From Chthonomonadales bacterium (GTDB lineage: Bacteria; Armatimonadota; Chthonomonadetes; Chthonomonadales; CAJBBX01): a stretch of DNA of 64,000 nt. The translations under genes and the position numbers were made by a program. Under the pieces are notes generated by a model, which was given only the letters and a program-made list of their open reading frames with translations, made no database searches and was not told the origin of the DNA. The stretch is taken from positions 1 to 64,000 of the forward strand of contig JADLGO010000001.1 in assembly GCA_020849275.1 (NCBI GenBank), in the 5' to 3' direction. Every line of letters begins with the position of its first letter. Within the stretch, counting starts at the first letter, position 1. Of the stretch, positions 1 through 24,981 are shown piece after piece.

Positions 1-469
1 TCATCCCCGGCATCGTCGTGGTCAGCAGCGCCGACATCGCGATGACCTGGGCGCCACGCTCCCGCGCCGCCTCCACGAACTTCTCCGGGCTCACGTCCAC
101 GCCCAGGTCGATCACCTCGAAGCCGCCGCCCTCCAGCATCGCCGCCACCAGGTTCTTGCCGATATCGTGCAGGTCGCCCCGCACCGTCCCGATCACCACC
201 TTGCCCGTCGGCTTCGCCCCGGTCTCCGCCAGGCGCGGGCGGATGAACTCCAGCGCACCCTTCATCGCCCGGGCGGCGATCAGCAGCTCGGGAACGAAGT
301 ACTCGTTGGCCTCGAAGCGTCGGCCCACTTCGTCCATCGCCGGGATCATGTAGCTGGAGAGCAGGTCCTGCGGGTCCGCGCCCTCCTCCAGCGCCTTCTG
401 GACGATGGTCTTCGTGGTTGGCGTGTCGCCCTCCAGCACGGCGACGTACAGGGGTTGCAGGTCGGTCAT
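1..469 (-). CDS. Corrinoid (B12)-binding protein, MtaC/MtbC type, 3' end outside window
   Basis: The 156 visible residues give a four-helix cap (about 1-88) followed by the start of a Rossmann-like cobalamin domain. The signature GDLHDIGKNLV places the lower axial histidine at His101, as in the corrinoid proteins of methanol and methylamine methyltransferases and in MetH. Such proteins carry a methyl group on cobalt between a substrate-specific methyltransferase and an acceptor enzyme in the cytoplasm. The ATG at 469-467 is preceded by GGGAGGAG, and a good promoter lies at 532-559. The C-terminus runs off the window, so no partner methyltransferase is visible on that side. The UroD-like protein at 19281-20501 belongs to a superfamily that includes corrinoid methyltransferases, but is 19 kb away. 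Confidence 0.88.
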   Translation of the reverse strand, partial: MTDLQPLYVAVLEGDTPTTKTIVQKALEEGADPQDLLSSYMIPAMDEVGRRFEANEYFVPELLIAARAMKGALEFIRPRLAETGAKPTGKVVIGTVRGDLHDIGKNLVAAMLEGGGFEVIDLGVDVSPEKFVEAARERGAQVIAMSALLTTTMPGM

Positions 470-531
470 GTCGCGCGTCACTCCTCCCTCAGGTCATTCG
501 GCCGCCGCGCACGGCGCACGGGACCGAGGTG

Positions 532-14292: not shown

Positions 14293-16875
14293 TCAGTCGT
14301 CGCCGTCGGGCTCGGCGGGTGGGTCGAACTTGCGCCATGGAAACGGCTCCGCGGGCCGACAGGCCGACCAGACGGCGCGCGCCACGACCGTCGGGTTCAC
14401 GCGGTCCACGTCCGACCAGTCCTGCCGCAGCGAGGCGGCCGCCAGCCGCCGCCGCTCGCCCTTCAGCGCGCGGGTCGGCGGGTTGAGCTCGTCCAGGCGC
14501 ACGCGAGCGGGCCGATGGACGAAAGGCCGCCAGTCCGGGCGGGTCGTGAAGCACGCGGTCATCGGCTGGCCCGTGCGGTCGAAGCGGTTCATCGGCGGAA
14601 GGCCGAGCACGAGCCCCATCGTGCGAACGAGGGACGTGTGGTTGTAGGGTTCGTGCACCACCGCGCCACGCCGCGTGTAGGGCGAGACGCAGAAGGCCAG
14701 CGTGCGGTGGCCGTCCACGTGGTCGAGGCCGAGTTGCGAGTCGTCCTCGATGATGAGGATCAGGGTCTCGCGCCAGAATCGCGAGTGGGAGATCCGGTCC
14801 ACGATGCGGCCCATCGCCAGGTCGTTGTCGGCCACGGCGGCGCGCGGCGTGGGCATGCCCGGCGAGGTGCCGGACGTGTGGTTGTTCGGCAGCAGCAGGA
14901 TGCATAGCGATGGCATCGTGCCGCTCTTCTCGAAGGCGTCCAGGTCGGCCAGGAACTGGTCGGCGCGCCACTGGTCGCTCACGATGGAGGGGAACCCGAT
15001 GAAGCGCGGGTGCAGGAACGGCCGAAGCGCCACGTTGTCGGTGTCGGCGGTGATCTGGTAGCGGCCGGCCCCGGAGCGGTAGTCGTCCCACAACTCCTTC
15101 CACGTGGGCCGTCGGCCAGGATCGGGACCGACGATGCGTGGCCGGTTCACGAACTCGCCGTAGACCCGCACGCTCACCCCCTCGGCCGCAGCCGCATTCC
15201 AGAGGAAGCCGGCGGGCGAGTAGGCCAATGGGTCGCCGCCGTTGTAGGGGTAGCTGCGGACATTGGCGCTGTAGTTCTGCTCCATGTAGCCGTTGGCGAC
15301 GGACGAGGAGGTCCACTGGTGCCCGTCGGCCGAGTTGGTGCCGCTCGTGTAGGTGTTGTCCAGGAGCACGAACTCGCGGGCGAGGGCGTGGTGGTTGGGC
15401 GTGACCTGCTCACCGAACAGCGTGAGCGACGCGTCGCCGTTGCCCTCGGGCATGTCGCCGAGCGTGCTGTCGTAGGTGTGGTTCTCCTTGATGATGTAGA
15501 CCACGTGGCGGAACACGCTGGGCTCGCCCACGCGCTCGGGCACCGGCACGGGCTTTCGCCCGCGCCGCGCCTGGAGCGTGGGGCGCCAGCGGTTGTTGGC
15601 GGCCACCCGCCGCGTCTGGGCGGCGATGTCGGCGACGTCGCCCGGCGCCACGAACTGCACGGTGCCCACGCTGTCATGAACGCCCAGGCCGCCCGTGCGG
15701 CCGGCTGGACGGGCGCCGATGCCCTTCGTGCTCGCCACGTACAGCCGTCCGTCGCCGCCGGCGGCCACGGCGACGGGGTACCACCCGGCCGCAAACCAGC
15801 CCGTCACGCGCGGTCCGGGGGCAAGGTCAACGGCGGCCACGGCGTTCGCTCCGCCGCACGCCACCCAGAGCCGCCGGCCGTCGGCCGAGAGCGCGACGGC
15901 GGTGGGCATCTGGCCGAAGCCCGGGTCACGCGGCGGCCGCAGCGTCAGGCGCCCGGTTTCCCGCAGCGACGCCGTGTCGACCAGCGAGAGGTCGTCGCCA
16001 TCGGAGTTTGCGACGTAGAGGGTGCGGCCGTCCCGCGATAGCGCCAGGCCGGAGGGCTGCCGGCCGACCGGCACGTCGGTCGCCGCGCCGGTTGCGAGGT
16101 CGACGACGCTCAGGCTGCCGCGGAGCGCCGCGTCGGTGCGGCGGTCGACGCGCACCGGCGTTCCGGCGGAGAGCTCCGTGCCGTCGGCCTCGGCGGGGGG
16201 CACGGCCCCTCCGCGGTTGGCGACGTAGAGGGTACGGCCGTCGGGCGAGAGCAGGATGCGGTAGGGGCAAACGCCCACCGGGAACGTGCGGGTGACGGCA
16301 AGGCCGGCAACGTCCAGCTCGGCAACGGCGTTGCGCACGCTGAGCGCCACGTAGATCCGCTTGCCGTCAGGCGCCACGGCGATGCCCGTGGGCTGAGGGT
16401 TGGCGGGCTGCCCGCGCGGCGGTCGCGCCCCGGCGGGCTCGACGGCCAGCGTGCCGACGGACTTCCAGGCGCCGTCGCGATCCGACAGGAGGCTCACGCG
16501 GCCGTTGCCGCCGGAGACATAGAGCGTGTCGCCGGCAGGGCTCCACGCCACGCCGAGCGGGCCGCCGCCCATGGCGACCTGCCCGCGCGGCTCGCCGTCC
16601 GCTCCGAAGAGCGCGACGCGGGCGGTGGCGAGGACGGCCAGCGTCCGGCCATCGGGGGAGAGCGCGATGTCCTTGGGGCGCGCGCCCTCGAGCCGCTCGA
16701 CCCTGCCGACCGGCGTGATCATCTGGTTGGTCGAGACCAGGTAGGCCCCAGAGGGCTGCCCGCCGAGCGTGCGGTAGGTGGCCTGCGAAGCCACGACGAC
16801 GGCCCCGATGGCGATGATGGAGACGGCGGCCGCTGCGGCGACGAACCGTCCGAGCGCTCTGCGTTTGACATACAT
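14293..16875 (-). CDS. YVTN beta-propeller fused to phosphoesterase (alkaline phosphatase superfamily)
   Basis: The 860-residue protein begins with a signal anchor (MYVKRRALGRF, then hydrophobic 12-32). Residues about 50-430 form a beta-propeller with repeated SPDGRTLYVANRGG-type YVTN motifs. The C-terminal half (about 480-830) is a phosphoesterase of the acid phosphatase/phospholipase C-like family. It has VVYIIKENHTYDSTLGDMPEG, where Glu-Asn-His-Thr is the conserved active-site start, and the metal-binding IIEDDSQLGLDHVDGHR. The enzyme is expected to act outside the cytoplasmic membrane on phosphate esters. The ATG at 16875 has GGAGGAAGCCG upstream; the longer open frame is rejected. This fusion occurs in Armatimonadota, Acidobacteria and Planctomycetes as far as I know, with no tested role. 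Confidence 0.87.
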   Translation of the reverse strand: MYVKRRALGRFVAAAAAVSIIAIGAVVVASQATYRTLGGQPSGAYLVSTNQMITPVGRVERLEGARPKDIALSPDGRTLAVLATARVALFGADGEPRGQVAMGGGPLGVAWSPAGDTLYVSGGNGRVSLLSDRDGAWKSVGTLAVEPAGARPPRGQPANPQPTGIAVAPDGKRIYVALSVRNAVAELDVAGLAVTRTFPVGVCPYRILLSPDGRTLYVANRGGAVPPAEADGTELSAGTPVRVDRRTDAALRGSLSVVDLATGAATDVPVGRQPSGLALSRDGRTLYVANSDGDDLSLVDTASLRETGRLTLRPPRDPGFGQMPTAVALSADGRRLWVACGGANAVAAVDLAPGPRVTGWFAAGWYPVAVAAGGDGRLYVASTKGIGARPAGRTGGLGVHDSVGTVQFVAPGDVADIAAQTRRVAANNRWRPTLQARRGRKPVPVPERVGEPSVFRHVVYIIKENHTYDSTLGDMPEGNGDASLTLFGEQVTPNHHALAREFVLLDNTYTSGTNSADGHQWTSSSVANGYMEQNYSANVRSYPYNGGDPLAYSPAGFLWNAAAAEGVSVRVYGEFVNRPRIVGPDPGRRPTWKELWDDYRSGAGRYQITADTDNVALRPFLHPRFIGFPSIVSDQWRADQFLADLDAFEKSGTMPSLCILLLPNNHTSGTSPGMPTPRAAVADNDLAMGRIVDRISHSRFWRETLILIIEDDSQLGLDHVDGHRTLAFCVSPYTRRGAVVHEPYNHTSLVRTMGLVLGLPPMNRFDRTGQPMTACFTTRPDWRPFVHRPARVRLDELNPPTRALKGERRRLAAASLRQDWSDVDRVNPTVVARAVWSACRPAEPFPWRKFDPPAEPDGDD

Positions 16876-17020
16876 CGGCTTCCTCCTGCCTGCTGCTCGA
16901 CCGCGACGCGCGGCTTCGGCCGGGCCACGCCGGTGGCGTGCCGGCTGCCCGCGCCGGGGGGTCTGTTCCACGCCGCGCGCGCCCCGTCCTCCGGCGGCCG
17001 CCGGCGCTCTTCCGCGCCCC

Positions 17021-17049
17021 TTGACGCCTGGCGGAACCGGGCGTACACT
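17021..17049 (+). promoter_or_regulatory. Sigma-70-type promoter upstream of the PepSY gene
   Basis: TTGACG is followed after exactly 17 bases by TACACT. The predicted start site near 17056 leaves about 53 bases to the ATG at 17109. Confidence 0.6.
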
Positions 17050-17108
17050 ACAGGCAGAGGCCGCCTCTCCCCCGATGTCGCGGCCGCGTTCCCTGGAGAG
17101 GTGCAGCG

Positions 17109-18467
17109 ATGCGTTCATCCGGGACGTGCGGGCCATGCCGGCTGACTCGCCTTCGCGCCGGGGGATCCTCCTTGTGCCTCCTGGCGCTCAGCCTCCTTGC
17201 GTCCAGCGCCGCGGCGGTCACCTGCGCTCGGAGCGTCGCCCGATCTCTCTCGTGGACCACGTGCCCTACCGTCGCTCCAGAGGCCCGGCCAGCCAGGTCG
17301 CGCGCACGCGCCAGCCGTTCGCGCGGCTACATCACGCCCGAGCAGGCGGTGCAGGCCGTGCGCGACTTCTGGGACGACCCGACGATCGAGGGAACCGTCA
17401 GCCGGCTGTACGAGGACGACCCGTTGGGACCATGTGGTGTCTTCTTTGACGTGGTGGTCGGCGATAGTGTCCACGCAGGCACCTACTCCGTGCGCGCGAC
17501 CGACGGGGCCGTGATGTCGGCCGACTTCCCCTGTCCCGACGACTATGACGCCGGGCTCTCGCCCACGCTCACCCTCGAGCAGGCGCAGGCCATCGCCGAG
17601 CGGTTCCTGCTGGAGCACTACCCGCCCTTCGCCCAGGGCGTCTGGCAGCGCCTGCCCGAGTACATGATACGCAACGACTGGCAGTACGGCTTCGCCTGGT
17701 ACCCCGTGCTCAACGCCTACGGCGTGCTGGGTCCGTTCGACGTTCGCGTGGAGGTCGACGGCGTCACCGGACAGGTGCGGCGCTTCCTTCGCCCGCGGGA
17801 GCGCATCACGGGGCCGACGGTGCCGCAGGTCACGATGGAGCAGGCCCGGCAGGTCGCGGTGCTCCACTGCTGCTACGACCCCGCGCTCGTTCCCTTCACC
17901 GAGGTCCGGCTGGAGCTCATCGAGGACAAAGGGAGTACGCAGACCCTCAAGTGGACGTTCTGGCAACAACCGGACCTTCCGGACGACCCGTGGTTTCGCT
18001 GCGCGATCAGCGTCAACGCGGTCACGGGGGAGTTCTGGCAGCACGAGTACCCACTGGGCGGCGGCATCGGCCCGAAGGCGCCGCCCAACCCGAACCGCTA
18101 CCGGCGGCACGGGCCGCGCGTGCGCTCGGGTCCGGGCGCCCCGCGCCAGGTGGAGACGCCCGACTACACGGACCTGCGCATCGAGGGTGGCCGGGCGTGG
18201 TGCCGAATGGCGGCGTTCCACGTCTTCGGCGCCGAGGCGCGCGTGGAGGACGGGGAGGTGAGGGTGCGCGCGCGCGGCCATGAGGTGCTGGGCGCGCAGG
18301 TGGGGGCGCGCCGGCTGGCCGGCGGCTGGTGGCTGCCGCTGCGGCGGACGGCGCGTGCGCTGGGCTGGCAGGTGGACTGGCTGCCGGCGACGAAGGAGGC
18401 GCCGCTGATGCCGTCCATGGAGCGGGCGGCGGCGACGCCGCGCCGCTCCACGCCGTCGGCGCGGTAG
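17109..18467 (+). CDS. Secreted PepSY-domain protein with C-terminal copper-amine-oxidase-N-like domain
   Basis: The 452-residue protein starts with a signal sequence (hydrophobic about 18-37). Two or three PepSY-like units follow: YITPEQAVQAVRDF, LTLEQAQAIAERFLLEHY and VTMEQARQVAVLHCCYD each open one, and each is followed by a strand ending in VDGVTGQVRRF or VNAVTGEFWQHE. The C-terminal 90 residues (GHEVLGAQVGARRLAGGWWLPLRRTARALGWQVDW) resemble the copper amine oxidase N-terminal-like domain used as an extracellular binding module. PepSY units often inhibit or regulate proteases. The ATG has GGAGAGGTG upstream. No protease gene adjoins it, so its target is unknown. Confidence 0.72.
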   Translation: MRSSGTCGPCRLTRLRAGGSSLCLLALSLLASSAAAVTCARSVARSLSWTTCPTVAPEARPARSRARASRSRGYITPEQAVQAVRDFWDDPTIEGTVSRLYEDDPLGPCGVFFDVVVGDSVHAGTYSVRATDGAVMSADFPCPDDYDAGLSPTLTLEQAQAIAERFLLEHYPPFAQGVWQRLPEYMIRNDWQYGFAWYPVLNAYGVLGPFDVRVEVDGVTGQVRRFLRPRERITGPTVPQVTMEQARQVAVLHCCYDPALVPFTEVRLELIEDKGSTQTLKWTFWQQPDLPDDPWFRCAISVNAVTGEFWQHEYPLGGGIGPKAPPNPNRYRRHGPRVRSGPGAPRQVETPDYTDLRIEGGRAWCRMAAFHVFGAEARVEDGEVRVRARGHEVLGAQVGARRLAGGWWLPLRRTARALGWQVDWLPATKEAPLMPSMERAAATPRRSTPSAR

Positions 18468-18492: not shown

Positions 18493-18522
18493 TGGACACC
18501 GCCCGAGCGGTCGTGATATGAT
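18493..18522 (+). promoter_or_regulatory. Promoter with a palindrome in the spacer, before the deoC operon
   Basis: TGGACA and TATGAT are separated by 18 bases. The spacer holds the inverted repeat ACCGC-CCGA-GCGGT (18498-18511), placed where a repressor would block polymerase. The deoC start follows 58 bases after the -10 box. Confidence 0.5.
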
Positions 18523-18579
18523 GCGCGCGGCCAGCCAGCCATGGTCGGGCGAGACGTGCGCGTGACGGAGCGGGAGGGC

Positions 18580-19284
18580 ATGGTGGACTACACGTTCGAG
18601 CAGATCGCGGCGATGATCGACCACTCGCTGCTGGCCCCGACGCTGACCGACGAACAGATGGAGGAGGGGTGCCGGCAGGCCCGCGCCCTCGGGGTGGCGA
18701 GCGTGTGCATCAAGCCCTACGGGCTGCGGCGCTGCGCCGACATCCTGGCGGGCAGCGGCGTCCGGCCGAGCACGACGGTCGGCTTCCCCCACGGCGGGCA
18801 CGCGACGGCGACCAAGGTGGCGGAGACGTGCCTGGCGCTGGCGGACGGCGCGGCCGAGGTGGACATGGTGATCAACGTCGGCAAGGCGCTCAGCGGCGAC
18901 TGGGGCTACGTACGCGCGGACATCGCCGCCGTGGTCGAGGCCGCGCACGCGGGCGGCGGCCTGGTCAAAGTGATCTTCGAGAACTGTCTGCTGGAGGACG
19001 CGCACAAGGTCCGGCTGTGCCAGATGTGCGGCGAGCTGGGGGCCGACTGGGTGAAGACCTCCACTGGCTACGGCGGCGGGGGCGCCACGGTGGAGGACGT
19101 CGCGCTGATGCGCCGCCACGCGCCACCGCACGTGCAGGTGAAGGCGGCGGGCGGCGTGCGCACCCTGGCCGCTCTACTGGCCGTGCGCAAGGTCGGAGCC
19201 ACGCGCGTCGGCGCCACCGCTACGGCGGCGATCCTGCATGAGTGCCGCCTGCGCCCGGCCGCGGGGAGGGAGCCGTCGCCATGA
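18580..19284 (+). CDS. deoC: Deoxyribose-phosphate aldolase
   Basis: The 234-residue protein matches DeoC along its length. VKTSTGY holds the Schiff-base lysine (Lys159), VKAAGGVR the second active-site lysine (Lys188), and EVDMVIN the Asp95 that relays protons. The enzyme splits 2-deoxyribose 5-phosphate into glyceraldehyde 3-phosphate and acetaldehyde. I chose the ATG at 18580, close behind GGGAGGG; the upstream in-frame ATG at 18541 has no ribosome binding site. The stop overlaps the next start as ATGA, which indicates translational coupling. The usual deo partners (deoA, deoB, deoD) are absent here, so a related aldolase role in another sugar pathway is possible. Confidence 0.93.
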   Translation: MVDYTFEQIAAMIDHSLLAPTLTDEQMEEGCRQARALGVASVCIKPYGLRRCADILAGSGVRPSTTVGFPHGGHATATKVAETCLALADGAAEVDMVINVGKALSGDWGYVRADIAAVVEAAHAGGGLVKVIFENCLLEDAHKVRLCQMCGELGADWVKTSTGYGGGGATVEDVALMRRHAPPHVQVKAAGGVRTLAALLAVRKVGATRVGATATAAILHECRLRPAAGREPSP

Positions 19285-20501
19285 CGCCACACGACCAGGC
19301 GCTGCTGCGCGAGTTGGCCCGCCGCGTTGCCGAGATCGCCGCGCTGCCCGCGATGGAGCGCCGGCGCGCCGAGTGGCGCCGCCACAACCGCCTGCTCCCC
19401 GGCCGGCCGATGATCCTCATCTTCCCGGAGGGCGCGTGGGCCGAGCTCCTGCCCGAGCGAGACCTGGCCTGCGGCGAGCCCGAGGCGCGGCGCATCGAGT
19501 TCGAGCTTCGGCACCGCATCTACACCTTCGAGCACTTCCGCGCCGACAACGTGGTGGAGGAGGAGTGGACCGTGCACAGCGCCATCCACTCGACGGGCTG
19601 GGGCCTTGAGCCCCGCCACCACGACAGCCCGGCCCCGCGCGGGGCATGGGCCTTCGACCCGGTGATCCGCGAGCCCGCCGACCTCCGCAAGCTTCGCTTC
19701 CCCGAGGTGCGCCACGACGAGGCGGAGACGGAGCGCCGCCACGAGGCCGCCGAGGCGCTGTTTGGCGACATCCTGCGGGTGCGCGTGAAGGGTGTCGCGC
19801 ATGTGTCTTTCCACCTGATGGGCCTCTACACCGAGCTGCGCGGTCTCGAGCAGACGATGACCGACATGTGCGAGAACCCCGCCTGGCTCCACGAGGCGAT
19901 GGAGCTCCTCACGGAGGGGCACCTGCGCCTTGTGCGCCAGTTCGAAGAGCAGAACCTGCTGAGCCTCAACAACGACAACACCTACCACTCCTCGGGCGGG
20001 AACGGCTTCACCGACGAGTTGCCCGCGCCCGGCTTCGACCCGGGTCGCGTGCGCCCGCGCGACATGTGGGCCTCCGCCGAATCGCAGGAGCTCGCGCAGG
20101 TCTCGCCGCGGATGCACGCCGAGTTCGCCACCTGCTACGAGAAGCGGCTGCTCGCGCCCTTCGGCCTCAACGGCTATGGCTGTTGCGAGAATCTGACGCG
20201 CAAGCTCGAGGACGTGCTCACCATTCCGAACTTGCGCCGCGTCTCCGTGGCGCCCACGGCGAGCGTGCCCGAGTGCGCCGCGCGCATCGGGCGTCGGTGC
20301 ATCCTCTCGTGGAAGCCGGACCCCACCTTCGTGATCGGCCGGTTCGACGCCTGCCGGCTACGCGCCTATCTTCACGAGGCCATCGAGGCCGCCGAGGGCT
20401 GCCCGCTGGAGATGATCCTGAAGGACACGCACACCTGCGAGCACCGGCCGGAGCGCTTCGACGCCTGGTCGAGCATCGCCGAGGACATCGTGGCGGCCTG
20501 A
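19281..20501 (+). CDS. Uroporphyrinogen decarboxylase-like (UroD superfamily) protein
   Basis: The 406-residue protein belongs to the UroD/MtaA superfamily branch marked by NGYGCCENL (297-305) and by KDTHTCEHRPERF (381-393), where paired Cys and His could bind zinc. That branch is not haem-biosynthetic HemE. Its better known relatives move methyl groups to or from corrinoids, but this subfamily has no settled reaction. The start overlaps deoC by four bases (ATGA) behind GGGGAGGGAG, and the sugar isomerase-like gene follows 18 bases later, so all three are one operon. Length is somewhat above the 340-360 residues of HemE, with an extended N-terminus. A role in sugar or sugar-derived C1 metabolism is inferred only from context. 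Confidence 0.8.
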   Translation: MTPHDQALLRELARRVAEIAALPAMERRRAEWRRHNRLLPGRPMILIFPEGAWAELLPERDLACGEPEARRIEFELRHRIYTFEHFRADNVVEEEWTVHSAIHSTGWGLEPRHHDSPAPRGAWAFDPVIREPADLRKLRFPEVRHDEAETERRHEAAEALFGDILRVRVKGVAHVSFHLMGLYTELRGLEQTMTDMCENPAWLHEAMELLTEGHLRLVRQFEEQNLLSLNNDNTYHSSGGNGFTDELPAPGFDPGRVRPRDMWASAESQELAQVSPRMHAEFATCYEKRLLAPFGLNGYGCCENLTRKLEDVLTIPNLRRVSVAPTASVPECAARIGRRCILSWKPDPTFVIGRFDACRLRAYLHEAIEAAEGCPLEMILKDTHTCEHRPERFDAWSSIAEDIVAA

Positions 20502-20519
20502 GCCGTCGCGGAGGAGCCG

Positions 20520-21359
20520 ATGCCGCACCTTGCCACCAACGAGTATCCCTGGTCCGTGCTCTACGCGCGCGACGGCCTGGACTGGAAGGGCTCGATCGAG
20601 GCCGGCCTTGACGAGGTGGCGGCGAGCGGCGCGCAGGGGCTCGAGCCCGCCTTCGAGTCGCCGGATGCGGTGGGGCCGCTGGCCGCCGCGCTCTGCGCGC
20701 GCGGGCTGCAGATGCGCTCGCTCTATGTGAGCACGGCGCTGCACGAGCCCGCGCTGTTGGAGGCGAGCCTCGGGCGCGTGACGGCGATCGCCCGCGCCGC
20801 CGCCCGCGTGGGCACACGGATCGTGGTGACCAATCCCGAGCCCCTGAGCTGGAGCACTCCTCGTGATAAGGACGACCGACAGCTCGAGTGCCAGGCTGCC
20901 GGGCTCGAGCGGCTGGGTGGCGCGCTGCGCGACCTCGGGCTGACGCTGGCCTACCACAACCACGACACGGAACTGCGGTGTGCCGCGCGCGAGCTCCACC
21001 ACATGATGCTCGCGACCGACCCGGCGCGCGTGGCGCTCTGCCTGGACGCGCACTGGGTATACCGCGGCGCGGGCGACTCGGCGATGGCGCTCTTCGACCT
21101 CGTGGCGCTCTACGGCGACCGCGTCGCCGAGTTGCACCTGCGCCAGTCGTCCGGCGGGGTGTGGAGTGAGACCTTCGGCCCGGGCGACATCGACTACGCT
21201 CGCCTTGCGAGCGCGCTCCGCGCGCGCGGAGCGCGCCCGCATCTCGTGCTCGAGCAGGCGGCGGAGGAGGGCACGCCGCGCACGCTGGGCCGCGTCGAAG
21301 CGCAGCGGCGCAGCGTCCAGGCGGCCCGCGAGCTGATGAGTGGCCTCGAGGCGGTCTGA
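20520..21359 (+). CDS. Xylose isomerase-like TIM-barrel (sugar phosphate isomerase/epimerase) protein
   Basis: The 279-residue protein has the AP endonuclease 2/xylose isomerase-like fold. LAYHNHDTEL gives the typical His-x-His metal site, ALCLDAHWVYRGAG the following Asp and His, and LVLEQAAEE the C-terminal Glu. Relatives include IolE, hydroxypyruvate isomerase and tagatose epimerases, acting on sugars or inosose with a divalent metal. GGAGGAGCC precedes the ATG. It is the third gene of the deoC operon, and its 3' end converges with the coiled-coil gene five bases away. The exact substrate is not predictable; pairing with an aldolase suggests it isomerises a ketose before cleavage. Confidence 0.85.
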   Translation: MPHLATNEYPWSVLYARDGLDWKGSIEAGLDEVAASGAQGLEPAFESPDAVGPLAAALCARGLQMRSLYVSTALHEPALLEASLGRVTAIARAAARVGTRIVVTNPEPLSWSTPRDKDDRQLECQAAGLERLGGALRDLGLTLAYHNHDTELRCAARELHHMMLATDPARVALCLDAHWVYRGAGDSAMALFDLVALYGDRVAELHLRQSSGGVWSETFGPGDIDYARLASALRARGARPHLVLEQAAEEGTPRTLGRVEAQRRSVQAARELMSGLEAV

Positions 21360-21364
21360 ATCCG

Positions 21365-23131
21365 TCAGACGCGCCCGTCGCGCGAGCAGACGTAGCGATA
21401 GAGCTGGTGGATGATCTGGTTGACGCCGTAGCCGCTCGGCAGGAGGATGAAGTGCCCGTCGGCCGCCTTCATCCACTCGCGCCCCATCTCGCTCATGTCG
21501 TGGCCAGCATAGTTCTTGACCAGCAGCAGCATACCGGAGCGTCGAATCTGCGCCTGGAACCTGGCGGCCTTGTCGCTCTTCTTGCTGGCGACCCATTGCA
21601 CGTCCTCCGCGCCGAGCACCTCCTTGAGCTCGTCGCACACGCGCTGCCTGGGGACACCGCCGAGGATCAGAATTCGCTGGCCCTGAGCGAAGCCCGCGAC
21701 CACCTGCCGGTACTGCTCGATGGCCGCGTCGGACAGCTCCTCCTCCGGTCCCTCGCAGCCGCCGGGCTCCGCGGCGGGCGCCGCATCGAGCCCCTGCCGT
21801 CTGCGCTCCGCCAGCACAGCCTCCAGGATGCGCGCATACGGTTCCCTGGCCGCCAGCAGGCGCGGGCCGCTCTCCAGCAGAGCCGCGCGCACCCGCCGAT
21901 CGGTGGTCGGTACGCCCGCATCGAGGCACTCGTCCAGCAGCGAGTACAGCTCGCCATCCAGCCGCGCGCGGTCGGCGGCGGGAGCCTGCTCTCGCGCCGC
22001 CCGCCAGTTCTCCACGGCGGTGACCGCGCCGCCGCGCCGGGCGAGGCGCTGTTCCCGCTCGTCTGCCTGGGCCGCCTCCCGCTGCGCCGCGGCGAGCAGG
22101 CCCGGCATCCGATCGGCCAGCTCGTCCAGGGCGCGCAGGCTCATCTCCGAGCTGAGCGCGCTCAGGTAGCCGGCGTCGCGGGCCGTGTCGCGCAGGGAAC
22201 CGTACAGCTCGGTCTGCAGCTTGTCGGAGCCGCCATGGCTCTCCAGCGCGCGATAGAGGCCCTGCTGAACCGCGGCGATGGCGTTCAGCAGGTGCAGTTG
22301 CGCGGCGCCGGACCCGGCGGGGTGGGCGGCGCACCAGCGGTACGCCTCGGCGGCCTCGGCCGTTCGGGCGTAGCGCGCTCCAAGGCCGGCCCACGCCTCG
22401 GCGCCGAGGGACGCCTCCCCCGAGCCCCAGACGGCCTCGTCAAACGGGAGGCACGGCGCGGCGTCGCCGGCGTAGTAGCGCCCAACGTCGATGCGGTCGC
22501 GCAACTCCAGCGCGGCCGGCGCGACGTCCGCCCCCACCCCCGCGGCGCGCGCCTCGGCCAGAGTCTGGCCCACGGAGCAGACGACGGCGCGCACGCGCAG
22601 GCAGGCCGCGAGGTCGGGGCCCTCACGTCCACCGAGGCCCTCCGCGTCGAGCGTGTGCCAGCGCTCCTCGGCACTGGCGAGGCGCTCCCGGAACGGGCCG
22701 GCCAGCGCCGCGCGCTCGGCGTCCGACAGCGCGTGCGGCGCCGATGCGACGGTCTGCGCGCCTCGATCCGCGTCGGGGCCAGTACCCGCGTCGGGGCCGC
22801 TATCCGCATCGGGTCCACTATCCGCGCAGGCCACAGCCATCACCGGTGGCGCGGCGGGCTCCTCCGTCGGGCGCGGCGCTCCGAGCGGGGCCAGCCGTGC
22901 GCGGAACCCGGCAAGCACGTTCTCCAGCTCGGCCGCGATCTCAGAGTCACCCTCCTCACGGGCCAGCGCGAGCTCGGCGTCTACCCTGGCGATCGCTTCC
23001 TCCAGGTGCTGCTGTTTTCGGCGGACATCGCGGCGGCGCTCGCGCCGCTCCCGCACATCCGCCAGGTAGGCGTCTAGCGCCTCCGGGGAATCGTAGATCT
23101 CCTCCGCATCCGTCGTTCCATCCTGTCGCAT
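21365..23131 (-). CDS. Coiled-coil protein with a C-terminal DUF2325-like domain, function unknown
   Basis: The 588-residue protein begins at an ATG with AAAGGAGA upstream. Residues 15-75 are strongly charged and helical (ERRERRRDVRRKQQHLEEAI). A hexapeptide-repeat linker (DSGPDA units, about 102-123) separates this from a long alpha-helical middle. The last 110 residues, opening with GQRILILGGVPRQRVCDELK and ending VNQIIHQLYRYVCS, resemble DUF2325, a small Rossmann-like domain with a GG turn. The same block contains WVASKKSDKAARF and LLLVKNYAGHDMSEMG. No signal or membrane segment is seen, so it is probably cytoplasmic. DUF2325 proteins are found near defence and nucleotide-related genes, but function is not known. 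It is divergent from the fucosidase gene. Confidence 0.6.
   Translation of the reverse strand: MRQDGTTDAEEIYDSPEALDAYLADVRERRERRRDVRRKQQHLEEAIARVDAELALAREEGDSEIAAELENVLAGFRARLAPLGAPRPTEEPAAPPVMAVACADSGPDADSGPDAGTGPDADRGAQTVASAPHALSDAERAALAGPFRERLASAEERWHTLDAEGLGGREGPDLAACLRVRAVVCSVGQTLAEARAAGVGADVAPAALELRDRIDVGRYYAGDAAPCLPFDEAVWGSGEASLGAEAWAGLGARYARTAEAAEAYRWCAAHPAGSGAAQLHLLNAIAAVQQGLYRALESHGGSDKLQTELYGSLRDTARDAGYLSALSSEMSLRALDELADRMPGLLAAAQREAAQADEREQRLARRGGAVTAVENWRAAREQAPAADRARLDGELYSLLDECLDAGVPTTDRRVRAALLESGPRLLAAREPYARILEAVLAERRRQGLDAAPAAEPGGCEGPEEELSDAAIEQYRQVVAGFAQGQRILILGGVPRQRVCDELKEVLGAEDVQWVASKKSDKAARFQAQIRRSGMLLLVKNYAGHDMSEMGREWMKAADGHFILLPSGYGVNQIIHQLYRYVCSRDGRV
22768..22825. repeat. 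Tandem 18-base repeat, about 3.2 copies, inside the coiled-coil gene
   Basis: Units of the form CGCGTCGGGGCCAGTACC, CGCGTCGGGGCCGCTATC and CGCATCGGGTCCACTATC follow one another. They are in frame and encode DSGPDA-type hexapeptides, so copy number can change without frameshift. Confidence 0.85.
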
Positions 23132-23247
23132 CCTCGTCTCCTTTCGCGCGTTTGCGCGTCTCGCGCCGTCCTGCCATCGGCTCACGCAGGAGAAGCCTCC
23201 CGGCGCGACGCATTTGCTGGCGTCATCATCGCCCAAGGAGGAGCCCT

Positions 23248-24981
23248 GTGCGCACCTCGATCTTCTACGCCGCCGCCCTGCTCTGCCTTCCTTGCGTGAC
23301 CGCGCGCGCCCAGGATGTCCCACGCCCGGAATCGCCCGCCCACCTCGCCGCGCGAACGCAGTGGTGGCGCGAGGCCAGGTTCGGCATGTTCATCCACTGG
23401 GGCATCTACGCCGTGCCCGCCAGCGCCGCCGGCGGCGCCGAATGGTACCTGAGCGGATCGCGAGTGCAGGTGAAGGACTACGAGAAGCTCGCCGCGCAGT
23501 TCAACCCGGTGCGCTTCAGCGCCGCCGAATGGGTCCGCGCCGCGAAGAACGCCGGCATGAAGTACATCGTGATCACCAGCAAGCATCACGACGGATTCTG
23601 CATGTTTCGGACCACGCTGACCCCCTACAACATCGTTGACGCCACGCCCTTCAGGCGCGATCCGATGGCGGAACTGGCTGTCGAGTGCCGCAGGCAGGGC
23701 ATCCGCCTTTGCTTCTACCACTCCATAATGGACTGGCACCACCCCGACTATCTGCCTCGCCGGCCGTGGGAGGCCGAGACCCGGCCCGCGGCGGGCGCCG
23801 ACCTCAACCGCTACATCGACTACATGGAGGGCGAGCTCCGCGAGCTCCTGACAAACTACGGCCCCATCGGCGTCCTCTGGTTCGACGGCGGCTGGGAGCA
23901 CAGCGCCGCGGAGCTGCGGTCCGCCGAGGTCAACCGCATGATCCGCTCGCTGCAGCCGGGAATCCTGATCAACGATCGCAACCAGTTACCCGAGGACTTT
24001 TCCACGCCCGAGCAGACGATCCCCGCCTCCGCCATGGCCGGCGGCCGGCTGTGGGAGACCTGCATGACGATCAACGACACGTGGGGATACACGAAGGATA
24101 ACACGAACTGGAAGTCGGCCGCCGACCTGGTCCACAAGCTCTGCGACATCGCCAGTAAGGGCGGCAACTTCCTGCTGAACGTGGGCCCAACCGCCGAGGG
24201 TGTCTTCCCGCGGCCCATCCTCGAGCGGCTCGGCGAGATCGGCGACTGGATGCGGGTGAACGGCGCCTCCATCCACGGCACCACGCGGAGCCCCTTCCGG
24301 CGCCTCGCCTTCGAGGGCCGCTGCACCGCAAAGCGCAACGTGCTCTACCTACAGGTGTTTCGCTGGCCCGACGAGGGCCTGACGCTGTCAGGCCTTCAGA
24401 CCCCGGTGCTCGAAGCTCGCACGATGGATGGACAGCGTCTGCGCGTGACCCGCGCGGCCGGCGCCGAAACGACCTACGTCTCGCGCCCGGCTCGCCTCGA
24501 TCCGATCGCGACCGTGGTGGCGGTACGCCTGGCGGGCGCGCCCGTGGTGACTCAGACGGCGCTGGCACAGGAGCCCGGGGCGGACGGCGCCTTCGTGCTG
24601 GGCGCGGCCGACGCCGAGATCCACGGCACGACCGCGCAGTATGAGCAGGGCGCGCAGCGTGACAACATCGGCTTCTGGACGGTGCCCGGCGACTACGTCA
24701 CCTGGGTCTGTCGCGCGCCCGCAGCCGGGCGGTACCGGGTGGAGGTCACCTATGCCTGCCCGCCGGAGAACGCCGGCAGCCGGTACAGCGTGGGCGTGGA
24801 GCAGGGCGGCTCGGTGCAGGGGGAGGTGAAGGCGACCGGTGACTGGGGCGCCTTCCGCGCCGAGCCGCTTGGCGAGCTCGACCTGCCGGCCGGCGCGCAG
24901 ATCCTCGCGGTGCGCGTGCGTGAGATGCCGCGCGGCGCGGTTATGAACCTGCGGTCGGTGCGGCTGGTTCCGGTGCGCTGA
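23248..24981 (+). CDS. Secreted alpha-L-fucosidase (GH29) with C-terminal carbohydrate-binding-like domain
   Basis: The GTG at 23248 follows AAGGAGGAG and opens a signal peptide (MRTSIFYAAALLCLPCVTARA). The 577-residue protein has the GH29 landmarks FGMFIHWGIYAVP (45-57), TSKHHDGFCMF (110-120), and GVLWFDGGW, whose Asp213 is the expected nucleophile. GGNFLLNVGPTAEG also fits. After about residue 430 there is a separate beta-sandwich (FWTVPGDYVTWVCRAPAAGRYRVEV region) like the modules that often follow GH29 barrels. The enzyme should release terminal alpha-L-fucose from glycans outside the cytoplasm. No fucose transporter or isomerase adjoins it. Confidence 0.92.
   Translation: MRTSIFYAAALLCLPCVTARAQDVPRPESPAHLAARTQWWREARFGMFIHWGIYAVPASAAGGAEWYLSGSRVQVKDYEKLAAQFNPVRFSAAEWVRAAKNAGMKYIVITSKHHDGFCMFRTTLTPYNIVDATPFRRDPMAELAVECRRQGIRLCFYHSIMDWHHPDYLPRRPWEAETRPAAGADLNRYIDYMEGELRELLTNYGPIGVLWFDGGWEHSAAELRSAEVNRMIRSLQPGILINDRNQLPEDFSTPEQTIPASAMAGGRLWETCMTINDTWGYTKDNTNWKSAADLVHKLCDIASKGGNFLLNVGPTAEGVFPRPILERLGEIGDWMRVNGASIHGTTRSPFRRLAFEGRCTAKRNVLYLQVFRWPDEGLTLSGLQTPVLEARTMDGQRLRVTRAAGAETTYVSRPARLDPIATVVAVRLAGAPVVTQTALAQEPGADGAFVLGAADAEIHGTTAQYEQGAQRDNIGFWTVPGDYVTWVCRAPAAGRYRVEVTYACPPENAGSRYSVGVEQGGSVQGEVKATGDWGAFRAEPLGELDLPAGAQILAVRVREMPRGAVMNLRSVRLVPVR

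What the first reader, a model, noticed from the sequence alone, without database searches (positions are those of the whole stretch)
18493..21359. Three-gene catabolic operon: aldolase, UroD-like protein, sugar isomerase-like protein
deoC and the UroD-like gene overlap (ATGA) and the isomerase gene follows by 18 bases, all behind one promoter with a palindrome in its spacer. deo partner genes are absent. A UroD-superfamily member with NGYGCCEN and THTCEHRP motifs in a sugar operon is unusual; it may act on a sugar-derived methyl or carboxyl group. This is the best candidate here for an undescribed pathway.
Basis: partly seen in the sequence, partly recalled or inferred. Interest (0 to 1): 0.55.

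Follow-up and report, generated by a model that had tools for sequence, protein, structure and literature searches.

The report
Unnamed UroD-family enzyme in lineage-specific operon
The three-gene operon is real but is a local arrangement of this bacterium rather than a conserved pathway; its interesting part is a widespread, unnamed enzyme subfamily that, in the genomes examined, occurs only alongside the machinery for vitamin-B12-dependent methyl transfer.

Summary
They are probably one transcript. They are not a conserved pathway: of 61 loci elsewhere that carry the UroD-like gene, none shows this order. In same-family genomes the orthologues lie on different contigs. DeoC is the genome's only such aldolase and nucleoside phosphorylases exist elsewhere, so it is probably ordinary.

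The UroD-like protein (UroDL) is the finding. It belongs to a well-supported clade spanning nine phyla, has no NCBIfam match and falls below Pfam's URO-D cut-off. Its predicted fold is UroD/MtaA-like. HemE's catalytic Asp is absent; MtaA's zinc motif is altered but keeps an invariant Cys302. Every UroDL-bearing genome also carries the corrinoid activator RACE: 61 of 61 fresh genomes against 31 of 79 without UroDL. A 41% homologue sits in an mtaC-mtaB-URO-D cluster. Best reading: a stand-alone, corrinoid-linked methyltransferase, substrate unknown. Metal site and methyl transfer are inferred, not shown.

The parts
18493..18522 (+). sigma-70-like promoter, TGGACA-18-TATGAT with extended -10
   Evidence: 1 found, 0.2 expected; a consensus match only
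18498..18511 (+). palindrome ACCGC-CCGA-GCGGT in the promoter spacer, possible operator
   Evidence: 1 found, 0.29 expected by chance; weak
18541..19284 (+). deoC, deoxyribose-phosphate aldolase; likely start 18580
   Evidence: TIGR00126 202 bits, cut-off 117; nearest PDB 8qps E 6.6e-55; only match in the genome
19281..20501 (+). UroDL: member of an unnamed UroD-superfamily subfamily, proposed corrinoid-linked methyltransferase
   Evidence: PF01208 only 14.4 bits, below 23.9; no NCBIfam match; AF2 pLDDT 95.9; UROD Z 20.0, MtaA Z 16.8; 27-row clade 100/99
20520..21359 (+). sugar isomerase/epimerase-like TIM barrel (PF01261)
   Evidence: 61.6 bits, cut-off 31.1; IolE model below its cut-off, 53 of 290 bits; nearest PDB IolE 9zmu E 1.1e-5
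2..481 (-). corrinoid (B12-binding) protein cut off by the contig end; possible partner in trans, not part of the operon
   Evidence: PF02310 and PF02607 matches; 473-bp stretch at 97.3% identity at the end of contig C5

Best explanation
The trio is a real but lineage-specific transcription unit of a Chthonomonadales-like (Armatimonadota) bacterium. It combines the genome's single deoxyribose-phosphate aldolase, a sugar isomerase/epimerase-like protein and UroDL. UroDL is a stand-alone enzyme of an unnamed UroD-superfamily subfamily. Proposed mechanism: the TIM-barrel active site holds a metal, most likely Zn, through invariant Cys302 (the position of the Cys of the HxC zinc motif in MtaA) together with residues of the GCCE and KD-x-H-T-C motifs (candidates Cys301, Glu303, His384 and, in the close group, Cys386). 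The metal activates the heteroatom of a small substrate so that a methyl group passes to or from a shared corrinoid protein, which is kept reduced by RACE. Shown: ORFs, clade, predicted fold, loss of the HemE Asp, conserved Cys302, strict co-occurrence with RACE. Inferred: metal binding, methyl transfer, corrinoid partner. Unknown: substrate.
For: Fold: UROD Z 20.0, methylcobalamin:CoM methyltransferase (4ay8) Z 16.8, MetE about 10-11. Profile comparison with 15 MtaA-like URO-Ds: probability 98.1, E 6e-14, placing LHICG on YGCCE with the Zn Cys on Cys302, invariant in 47 of 47 rows; the global version places the third Zn Cys on Cys386. Co-occurrence with RACE: 32 of 32 UroDL genomes against 8 of 29 others in the first set, then 61 of 61 against 31 of 79 in 140 genomes not used before; by family 16 of 16 against 2 of 8. 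Controls DeoC and the isomerase show no such association (p 0.11 and 0.31). A 41% homologue in G002 sits in corrinoid protein - MtaB - unmatched ORF - URO-D - UroDL - S-methyl_trans - URO-D - URO-D. The own genome has MtaB, RACE and corrinoid proteins. URO-D genes adjoin UroDL in L010 and L013. Lineage-specific order: 0 of 61 loci.
Against: No corrinoid, activator or canonical methyltransferase gene adjoins UroDL in the window or in most close relatives; partners are heterogeneous. Co-occurrence is not corrected for phylogeny beyond family level and may reflect lifestyle or the general URO-D expansion: 6 to 28-plus URO-D genes in UroDL genomes, 0 to 19 in the others. RACE is also present in 39 of 108 genomes without UroDL. 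The His of the MtaA motif is Gly in UroDL, and Cys386 is conserved only in the close group (26 of 27 against 7 of 20), so the metal site is uncertain; some UroD-family methyltransferases such as CdmB have no zinc (PMC13222342, passages). The C-terminal motif alignment depends on a forced global alignment.
Confidence: 0.48

Rival explanations
1. UroDL is a corrinoid-independent enzyme of carbohydrate catabolism: it uses the UroD barrel, with or without metal, to decarboxylate, isomerise or cleave a sugar-derived acid. Its link to RACE is only because both are common in the same kind of saccharolytic bacteria.
For: Sugar-related neighbours at several loci: GH95 65 bp before the UroDL match in L011, FucI, a PF01261 protein and a GH106-like protein in L061, GH4 in L056, a PF01261 protein 16 bp away in L008, sulfatase and GH3 in L021, GH106-like in L150; a GH29 fucosidase at 22744-24981 in the window. 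The HxC motif of the methyltransferases is not kept.
Against: Neighbours are at least as often unrelated to sugars (DciA, DNA alkylation repair, thymidine kinase, DAHP synthase, MatE, histidine kinase), and no background rate of glycoside hydrolases was computed, so chance adjacency was not excluded. The perfect RACE co-occurrence is unexplained by this reading.
Confidence: 0.27
2. The three genes form a dedicated undescribed sugar pathway: isomerase, UroDL and aldolase act in sequence.
For: ATGA overlap and 18-bp gap behind one promoter; aldolase plus isomerase is a plausible pair, and DeoC orthologues in other genomes also adjoin PF01261 genes of another cluster.
Against: 0 of 61 UroDL loci have the order; the nearest cases are an isomerase orthologue 1.8 kb from a 35% UroDL paralogue with a subtilase gene between (L095) and DeoC 2.2 kb from a 34% paralogue on the opposite strand (L107, L109). 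DeoC is single-copy and equivalog-level.
Confidence: 0.08
3. UroDL is a heme-pathway uroporphyrinogen decarboxylase (HemE).
For: Best structural matches are UROD entries, Z up to 20.0.
Against: URO-D score 14.4 bits, below the cut-off. The HemE FSD Asp aligns with the SD of the MtaA-like proteins, which aligns with Val98-His99 of UroDL, not a conserved Asp. Paralogues reach 9-10 per genome.
Confidence: 0.02

Closest known systems
MtaA-type methylcobalamin:coenzyme M methyltransferases and their bacterial relatives (UroD superfamily)
   Same: Fold (4ay8 Z 16.8, 279 residues); Cys of the HxC motif kept as Cys302; UroDL occurs only in genomes with the RACE activator among the 201 examined
   Different: 12% identity; His of HxC is Gly; a GCCE motif instead; extra conserved KDxHT; no corrinoid gene adjacent in the window
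Uroporphyrinogen III decarboxylase HemE
   Same: Overall fold, Z 20.0 with 288 residues aligned
   Different: 14% identity, catalytic Asp absent, below the Pfam cut-off
UroD-family O-demethylases and dehalogenases (OdmB, VdmB, MtvB, CdmB; CmuA)
   Same: Same superfamily; the O-demethylases and CdmB act with a separate corrinoid protein and an activator (PMC10418091 and PMC13222342, passages seen)
   Different: No direct sequence comparison was made here; those systems are gene clusters, UroDL stands alone
Deoxyribose-phosphate aldolase (DeoC)
   Same: TIGR00126 above cut-off, both Lys motifs VKTSTG and VKAAGG present (the catalytic role of these Lys is recalled)
   Different: Sits outside any deo operon

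Membership tests
UroD superfamily (fold) | UroD-like TIM barrel | tested here: met
   AF2 model pLDDT 95.9; Foldseek E 2.8e-6 to UROD; Z 20.0
Pfam URO-D PF01208 | score above the gathering cut-off of 23.9 bits | tested here: not met
   14.4 bits; 8 of 47 family members match at E 0.01 or better
HemE | catalytic Asp of the FSD motif | tested here: not met
   transitive alignment; column 99 is mostly Q, S, H or N in the close group; the residue's catalytic role is recalled
MtaA/SCMT methyltransferases | Zn motif HxC ... C | tested here: not met
   His replaced by Gly300, Cys kept as Cys302; third Cys aligned to Cys386 by global alignment, 26 of 27 close and 7 of 20 distant rows
MtaA/SCMT methyltransferases | RACE activator and corrinoid protein in the same genome | tested here: met
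MtaA/SCMT methyltransferases | corrinoid protein gene in the same cluster | tested here: not met
   none among the neighbouring window proteins scanned, and the only B12-binding_2 match on contig C1 is at 245-457; met for a 41% homologue in G002
MtaA/SCMT methyltransferases | methyl transfer with a corrinoid protein | not testable with these tools
   needs protein
DeoC (TIGR00126) | score above the equivalog cut-off | tested here: met
   202 of 117.3 bits
IolE (TIGR04379), for the isomerase-like gene | score above the equivalog cut-off | tested here: not met
   53.1 of 290 bits
PF01261 xylose-isomerase-like | score above the gathering cut-off | tested here: met
   61.6 of 31.1 bits

The most novel reading that the evidence does not exclude
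UroDL and the large URO-D expansion of these Armatimonadota are a modular set of corrinoid-dependent demethylases. Many stand-alone substrate-specific subunits share one or two corrinoid proteins and a single RACE activator, and they remove methyl groups from O-methylated plant or algal sugars (for example methyl-fucose or methyl-rhamnose) released by the co-occurring glycoside hydrolases. UroDL would use a rearranged metal site, with a lone Cys in the GCCE motif and His-x-Cys near the last strand, in place of MtaA's His-x-Cys and lone Cys.
Probability: 0.17. Interest if true: 0.68.

Novelty: new variant of a known kind. Interest (0 to 1): 0.36.

Why it matters
UroDL is a common protein in little-studied phyla (93 of 201 genomes of the window's phylum at E 1e-30; relatives in nine phyla) with no Pfam-level or NCBIfam name. 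Its strict co-occurrence with the corrinoid activator points to an unrecognised set of B12-dependent methyl transfers in mostly uncultured carbon degraders. If the metal-site rearrangement is real, it would also be a natural experiment in how the UroD fold changes chemistry. The three-gene operon itself matters little.

Tried and rejected
Conserved three-gene pathway: rejected (0 of 61 loci; different contigs in same-family genomes). HemE: rejected. Sequence search of the PDB with UroDL alone found nothing, and the family profile only weak UROD matches, best E 0.023. PHROGs gave only a chance-level match. A fixed operon partner of UroDL was sought by Pfam scans of neighbours; none recurs. A deoxysugar link (GH95, FucI, GH106, GH29) was considered; no background rate for such neighbours was computed, so it stays a lead. 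An idea that contig C50 continues into the truncated corrinoid gene was looked at and not supported by the frames printed (only one strand was printed), so it was dropped. Paper searches for a description of this subfamily (eight searches of the held PMC library, listings only, plus passages of PMC10418091 and PMC13222342) found none; most subscription papers are not in that library.

Rows dropped before counts: from alignment A1 I left out L019 (first 28 residues in a separate piece), L027 (same contig as L012) and the fragments of L025 and L026. A1 keeps two pairs of identical rows (L003/L028, L004/L029), so its 47 rows are 45 different sequences. In one search, L003, L004, L009, L011, L012 and L023 were replaced by copies of the same contigs; the 61 loci include L026 (a fragment), L069 (the window genome's own paralogue) and L095, L107 and L109, which were added because searches showed two of the genes near each other. 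URO-D counts are capped at about 28 scored candidates per genome. One search used the E 0.001 threshold; one search used the E 1e-30 threshold; the positive sets agree on the shared 61 genomes. The genome lists in the scripts were copied by hand from the tables.
Full report
What is in the sequence. The window lies in contig C1 of a 4.80-Mb assembly in 73 contigs. Its nearest relatives for this gene are Chthonomonadales of the Armatimonadota. Three ORFs stand in the order reported: 18541-19284, 19281-20501 and 20520-21359, with an ATGA overlap and an 18-base gap. Alignments of close homologues begin at residues 8-17 of the first ORF, so deoC probably starts at 18580. One promoter-like site precedes them. 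The palindrome in its spacer is present but within chance for this window. Co-transcription is likely from spacing alone and was not tested.

The flanking genes. DeoC passes the equivalog cut-off for deoxyribose-phosphate aldolase with 202 bits against 117, its nearest solved relative is a DERA at E 6.6e-55, and it is the only match in its genome. The genome holds three PNP_UDP_1 and two Glycos_transf_3 matches elsewhere, so a scattered deoxynucleoside salvage route is plausible. The third gene is a PF01261 TIM barrel (61.6 bits against 31.1), distantly IolE-like but far below the IolE cut-off.

Conservation of the order. Orthologues of the three genes lie on different contigs in same-family genomes: UroDL, DeoC and isomerase are on C190, C107 and C1 in G007, and on C174, C336 and C218 in G010. 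Among 61 loci elsewhere that carry a UroDL gene, 33 of them at 50% identity or more, no locus shows the window's order. Only three show one of the other two genes at all: L095 has an isomerase orthologue 1.8 kb from a 35% UroDL, with a subtilase gene between them, and L107 and L109 have DeoC 2.2 kb from a 34% UroDL on the opposite strand. These three were added because the coordinates of earlier calls showed them. No other genome of the same genus was among the relatives searched, so conservation within the genus is untested.

UroDL as a family. The window protein scores 14.4 bits against Pfam URO-D (cut-off 23.9) and matches no NCBIfam model. Of 47 family members, 8 match URO-D at E 0.01 or better. 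One scan of genome contigs found 24 relatives in Armatimonadota, Chloroflexota, Poribacteria, Latescibacterota, Hydrogenedentota, Kiritimatiellota, Lentisphaerota, Spirochaetota and Planctomycetota. In a tree of 47 rows the window protein falls in a 27-row clade with support 100/99 that spans these nine phyla, and within an Armatimonadota clade with 96/97. Many genomes hold several more distant paralogues, up to 10 in G040.

Fold and active site. The AlphaFold2 model has mean pLDDT 95.9 and pTM 0.91. Foldseek's first 24 matches are UROD and M. mazei methyltransferase entries. VIA-align gives UROD Z 20.0 (rmsd 4.1, 288 aligned, 14% identity), MtaA 4ay8 Z 16.8 (rmsd 4.0, 279 aligned, 12% identity) and MetE entries about 10-11. 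A profile of 15 MtaA-like URO-Ds with the HxC...C zinc motif aligns with the UroDL profile at probability 98.1, E 6e-14. LHICG falls on YGCCE: His on Gly300, Ile on Cys301, Cys on Cys302, Gly on Glu303. Cys302 is invariant in 47 of 47 rows, Cys301 in 46 of 47 and Asp382 in 47 of 47; His384 is kept in 42 of 47. A forced global alignment places the third zinc Cys on Cys386, which is kept in 26 of 27 close and 7 of 20 distant rows. So the close group could still assemble a His-Cys-Cys site with the His moved from the GCCE strand to the last strand. That is inference; coordinates could not be measured. According to PMC10418091 (passages), His-Cys-Cys sites go with S-methyl transfer and carboxylate-substituted ones with O-methyl transfer; according to PMC13222342 (passages), some members such as CdmB need no zinc. 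The HemE catalytic Asp has no counterpart: it aligns with the SD of the MtaA-like proteins and this with Val98-His99 of UroDL.

Link to corrinoid methyl transfer. In 61 genomes the RACE activator (PF14574) is present in 32 of 32 UroDL-positive and 8 of 29 UroDL-negative genomes; collapsed to families, 16 of 16 against 2 of 8 (Fisher p 2e-4). In 140 genomes not used before the figures are 61 of 61 against 31 of 79 (Fisher p 1e-16, not corrected for phylogeny). DeoC and the isomerase show no such association in the first set (p 0.11 and 0.31). UroDL-positive genomes also hold many URO-D genes, 6 to the cap of about 28, against 0 to 19 in the others, so UroDL may simply be part of that expansion. 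The own genome holds one RACE gene, one MtaB and B12-binding_2 proteins on C1, C5, C11 and C18, of which one is cut off at window 2-481. In G002 a 41% homologue lies in a run of corrinoid protein, MtaB, an unmatched ORF, URO-D, UroDL, S-methyl_trans, URO-D and URO-D. This is direct contextual evidence for a relative, not for the window protein.

Neighbours. Neighbours of UroDL scanned with Pfam are heterogeneous. Some are sugar-related: GH95 in L011, FucI, a PF01261 protein and a GH106-like protein in L061, GH4 in L056, a PF01261 protein in L008, sulfatase and GH3 in L021. Some are URO-D genes (L010, L013, L068). Many are unrelated (DciA, DNA alkylation repair, thymidine kinase, DAHP synthase, MatE). 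No background rate was computed. UroDL behaves as a free-standing gene that drifts between operons.

Verdict. The operon is ordinary for its outer genes and lineage-specific as an arrangement. UroDL is an unnamed subfamily of a known superfamily, most likely a corrinoid-linked methyltransferase with an altered active site and an unknown substrate. No description was found in eight searches of the held library, which lacks most subscription papers.

Noticed in passing
window 2-481 (-): Corrinoid-binding protein (PF02607 plus PF02310) cut off by the contig end; the first 473 bp are 97.3% identical to the end of contig C5, so the genome has at least two near-identical copies.
   Followed up: partly
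window 22744-24981 (+): GH29 alpha-L-fucosidase (PF01120, 328 bits) near the operon, with an opposite-strand ORF between them; the true start is probably downstream of the listed one.
   Followed up: partly
whole genome and relatives: Very large URO-D superfamily expansion in these Armatimonadota: at least 28 members in the own genome (the scoring cap), none at HemE-like scores.
   Followed up: partly
L068 3180-12137: Cluster of corrinoid protein, MtaB, three URO-D genes, UroDL and S-methyl_trans, a bacterial methanol-type methyltransferase locus.
   Followed up: partly
L152, L154, L155: UroDL homologues of about 46-48% identity lie next to MatE transporter genes in three genomes.
   Followed up: no
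window 14293-17136 (-): 947-aa protein with beta-propeller (lactonase-like) and phosphoesterase PF04185 matches.
   Followed up: no
window 17109-18467 (+): 452-aa ORF directly upstream without any Pfam match at E 0.001.
   Followed up: no
many genomes: Many PF14574 (RACE) matches are listed with one in-frame stop codon; most likely the alignment runs past the gene end, but this was not checked.
   Followed up: no
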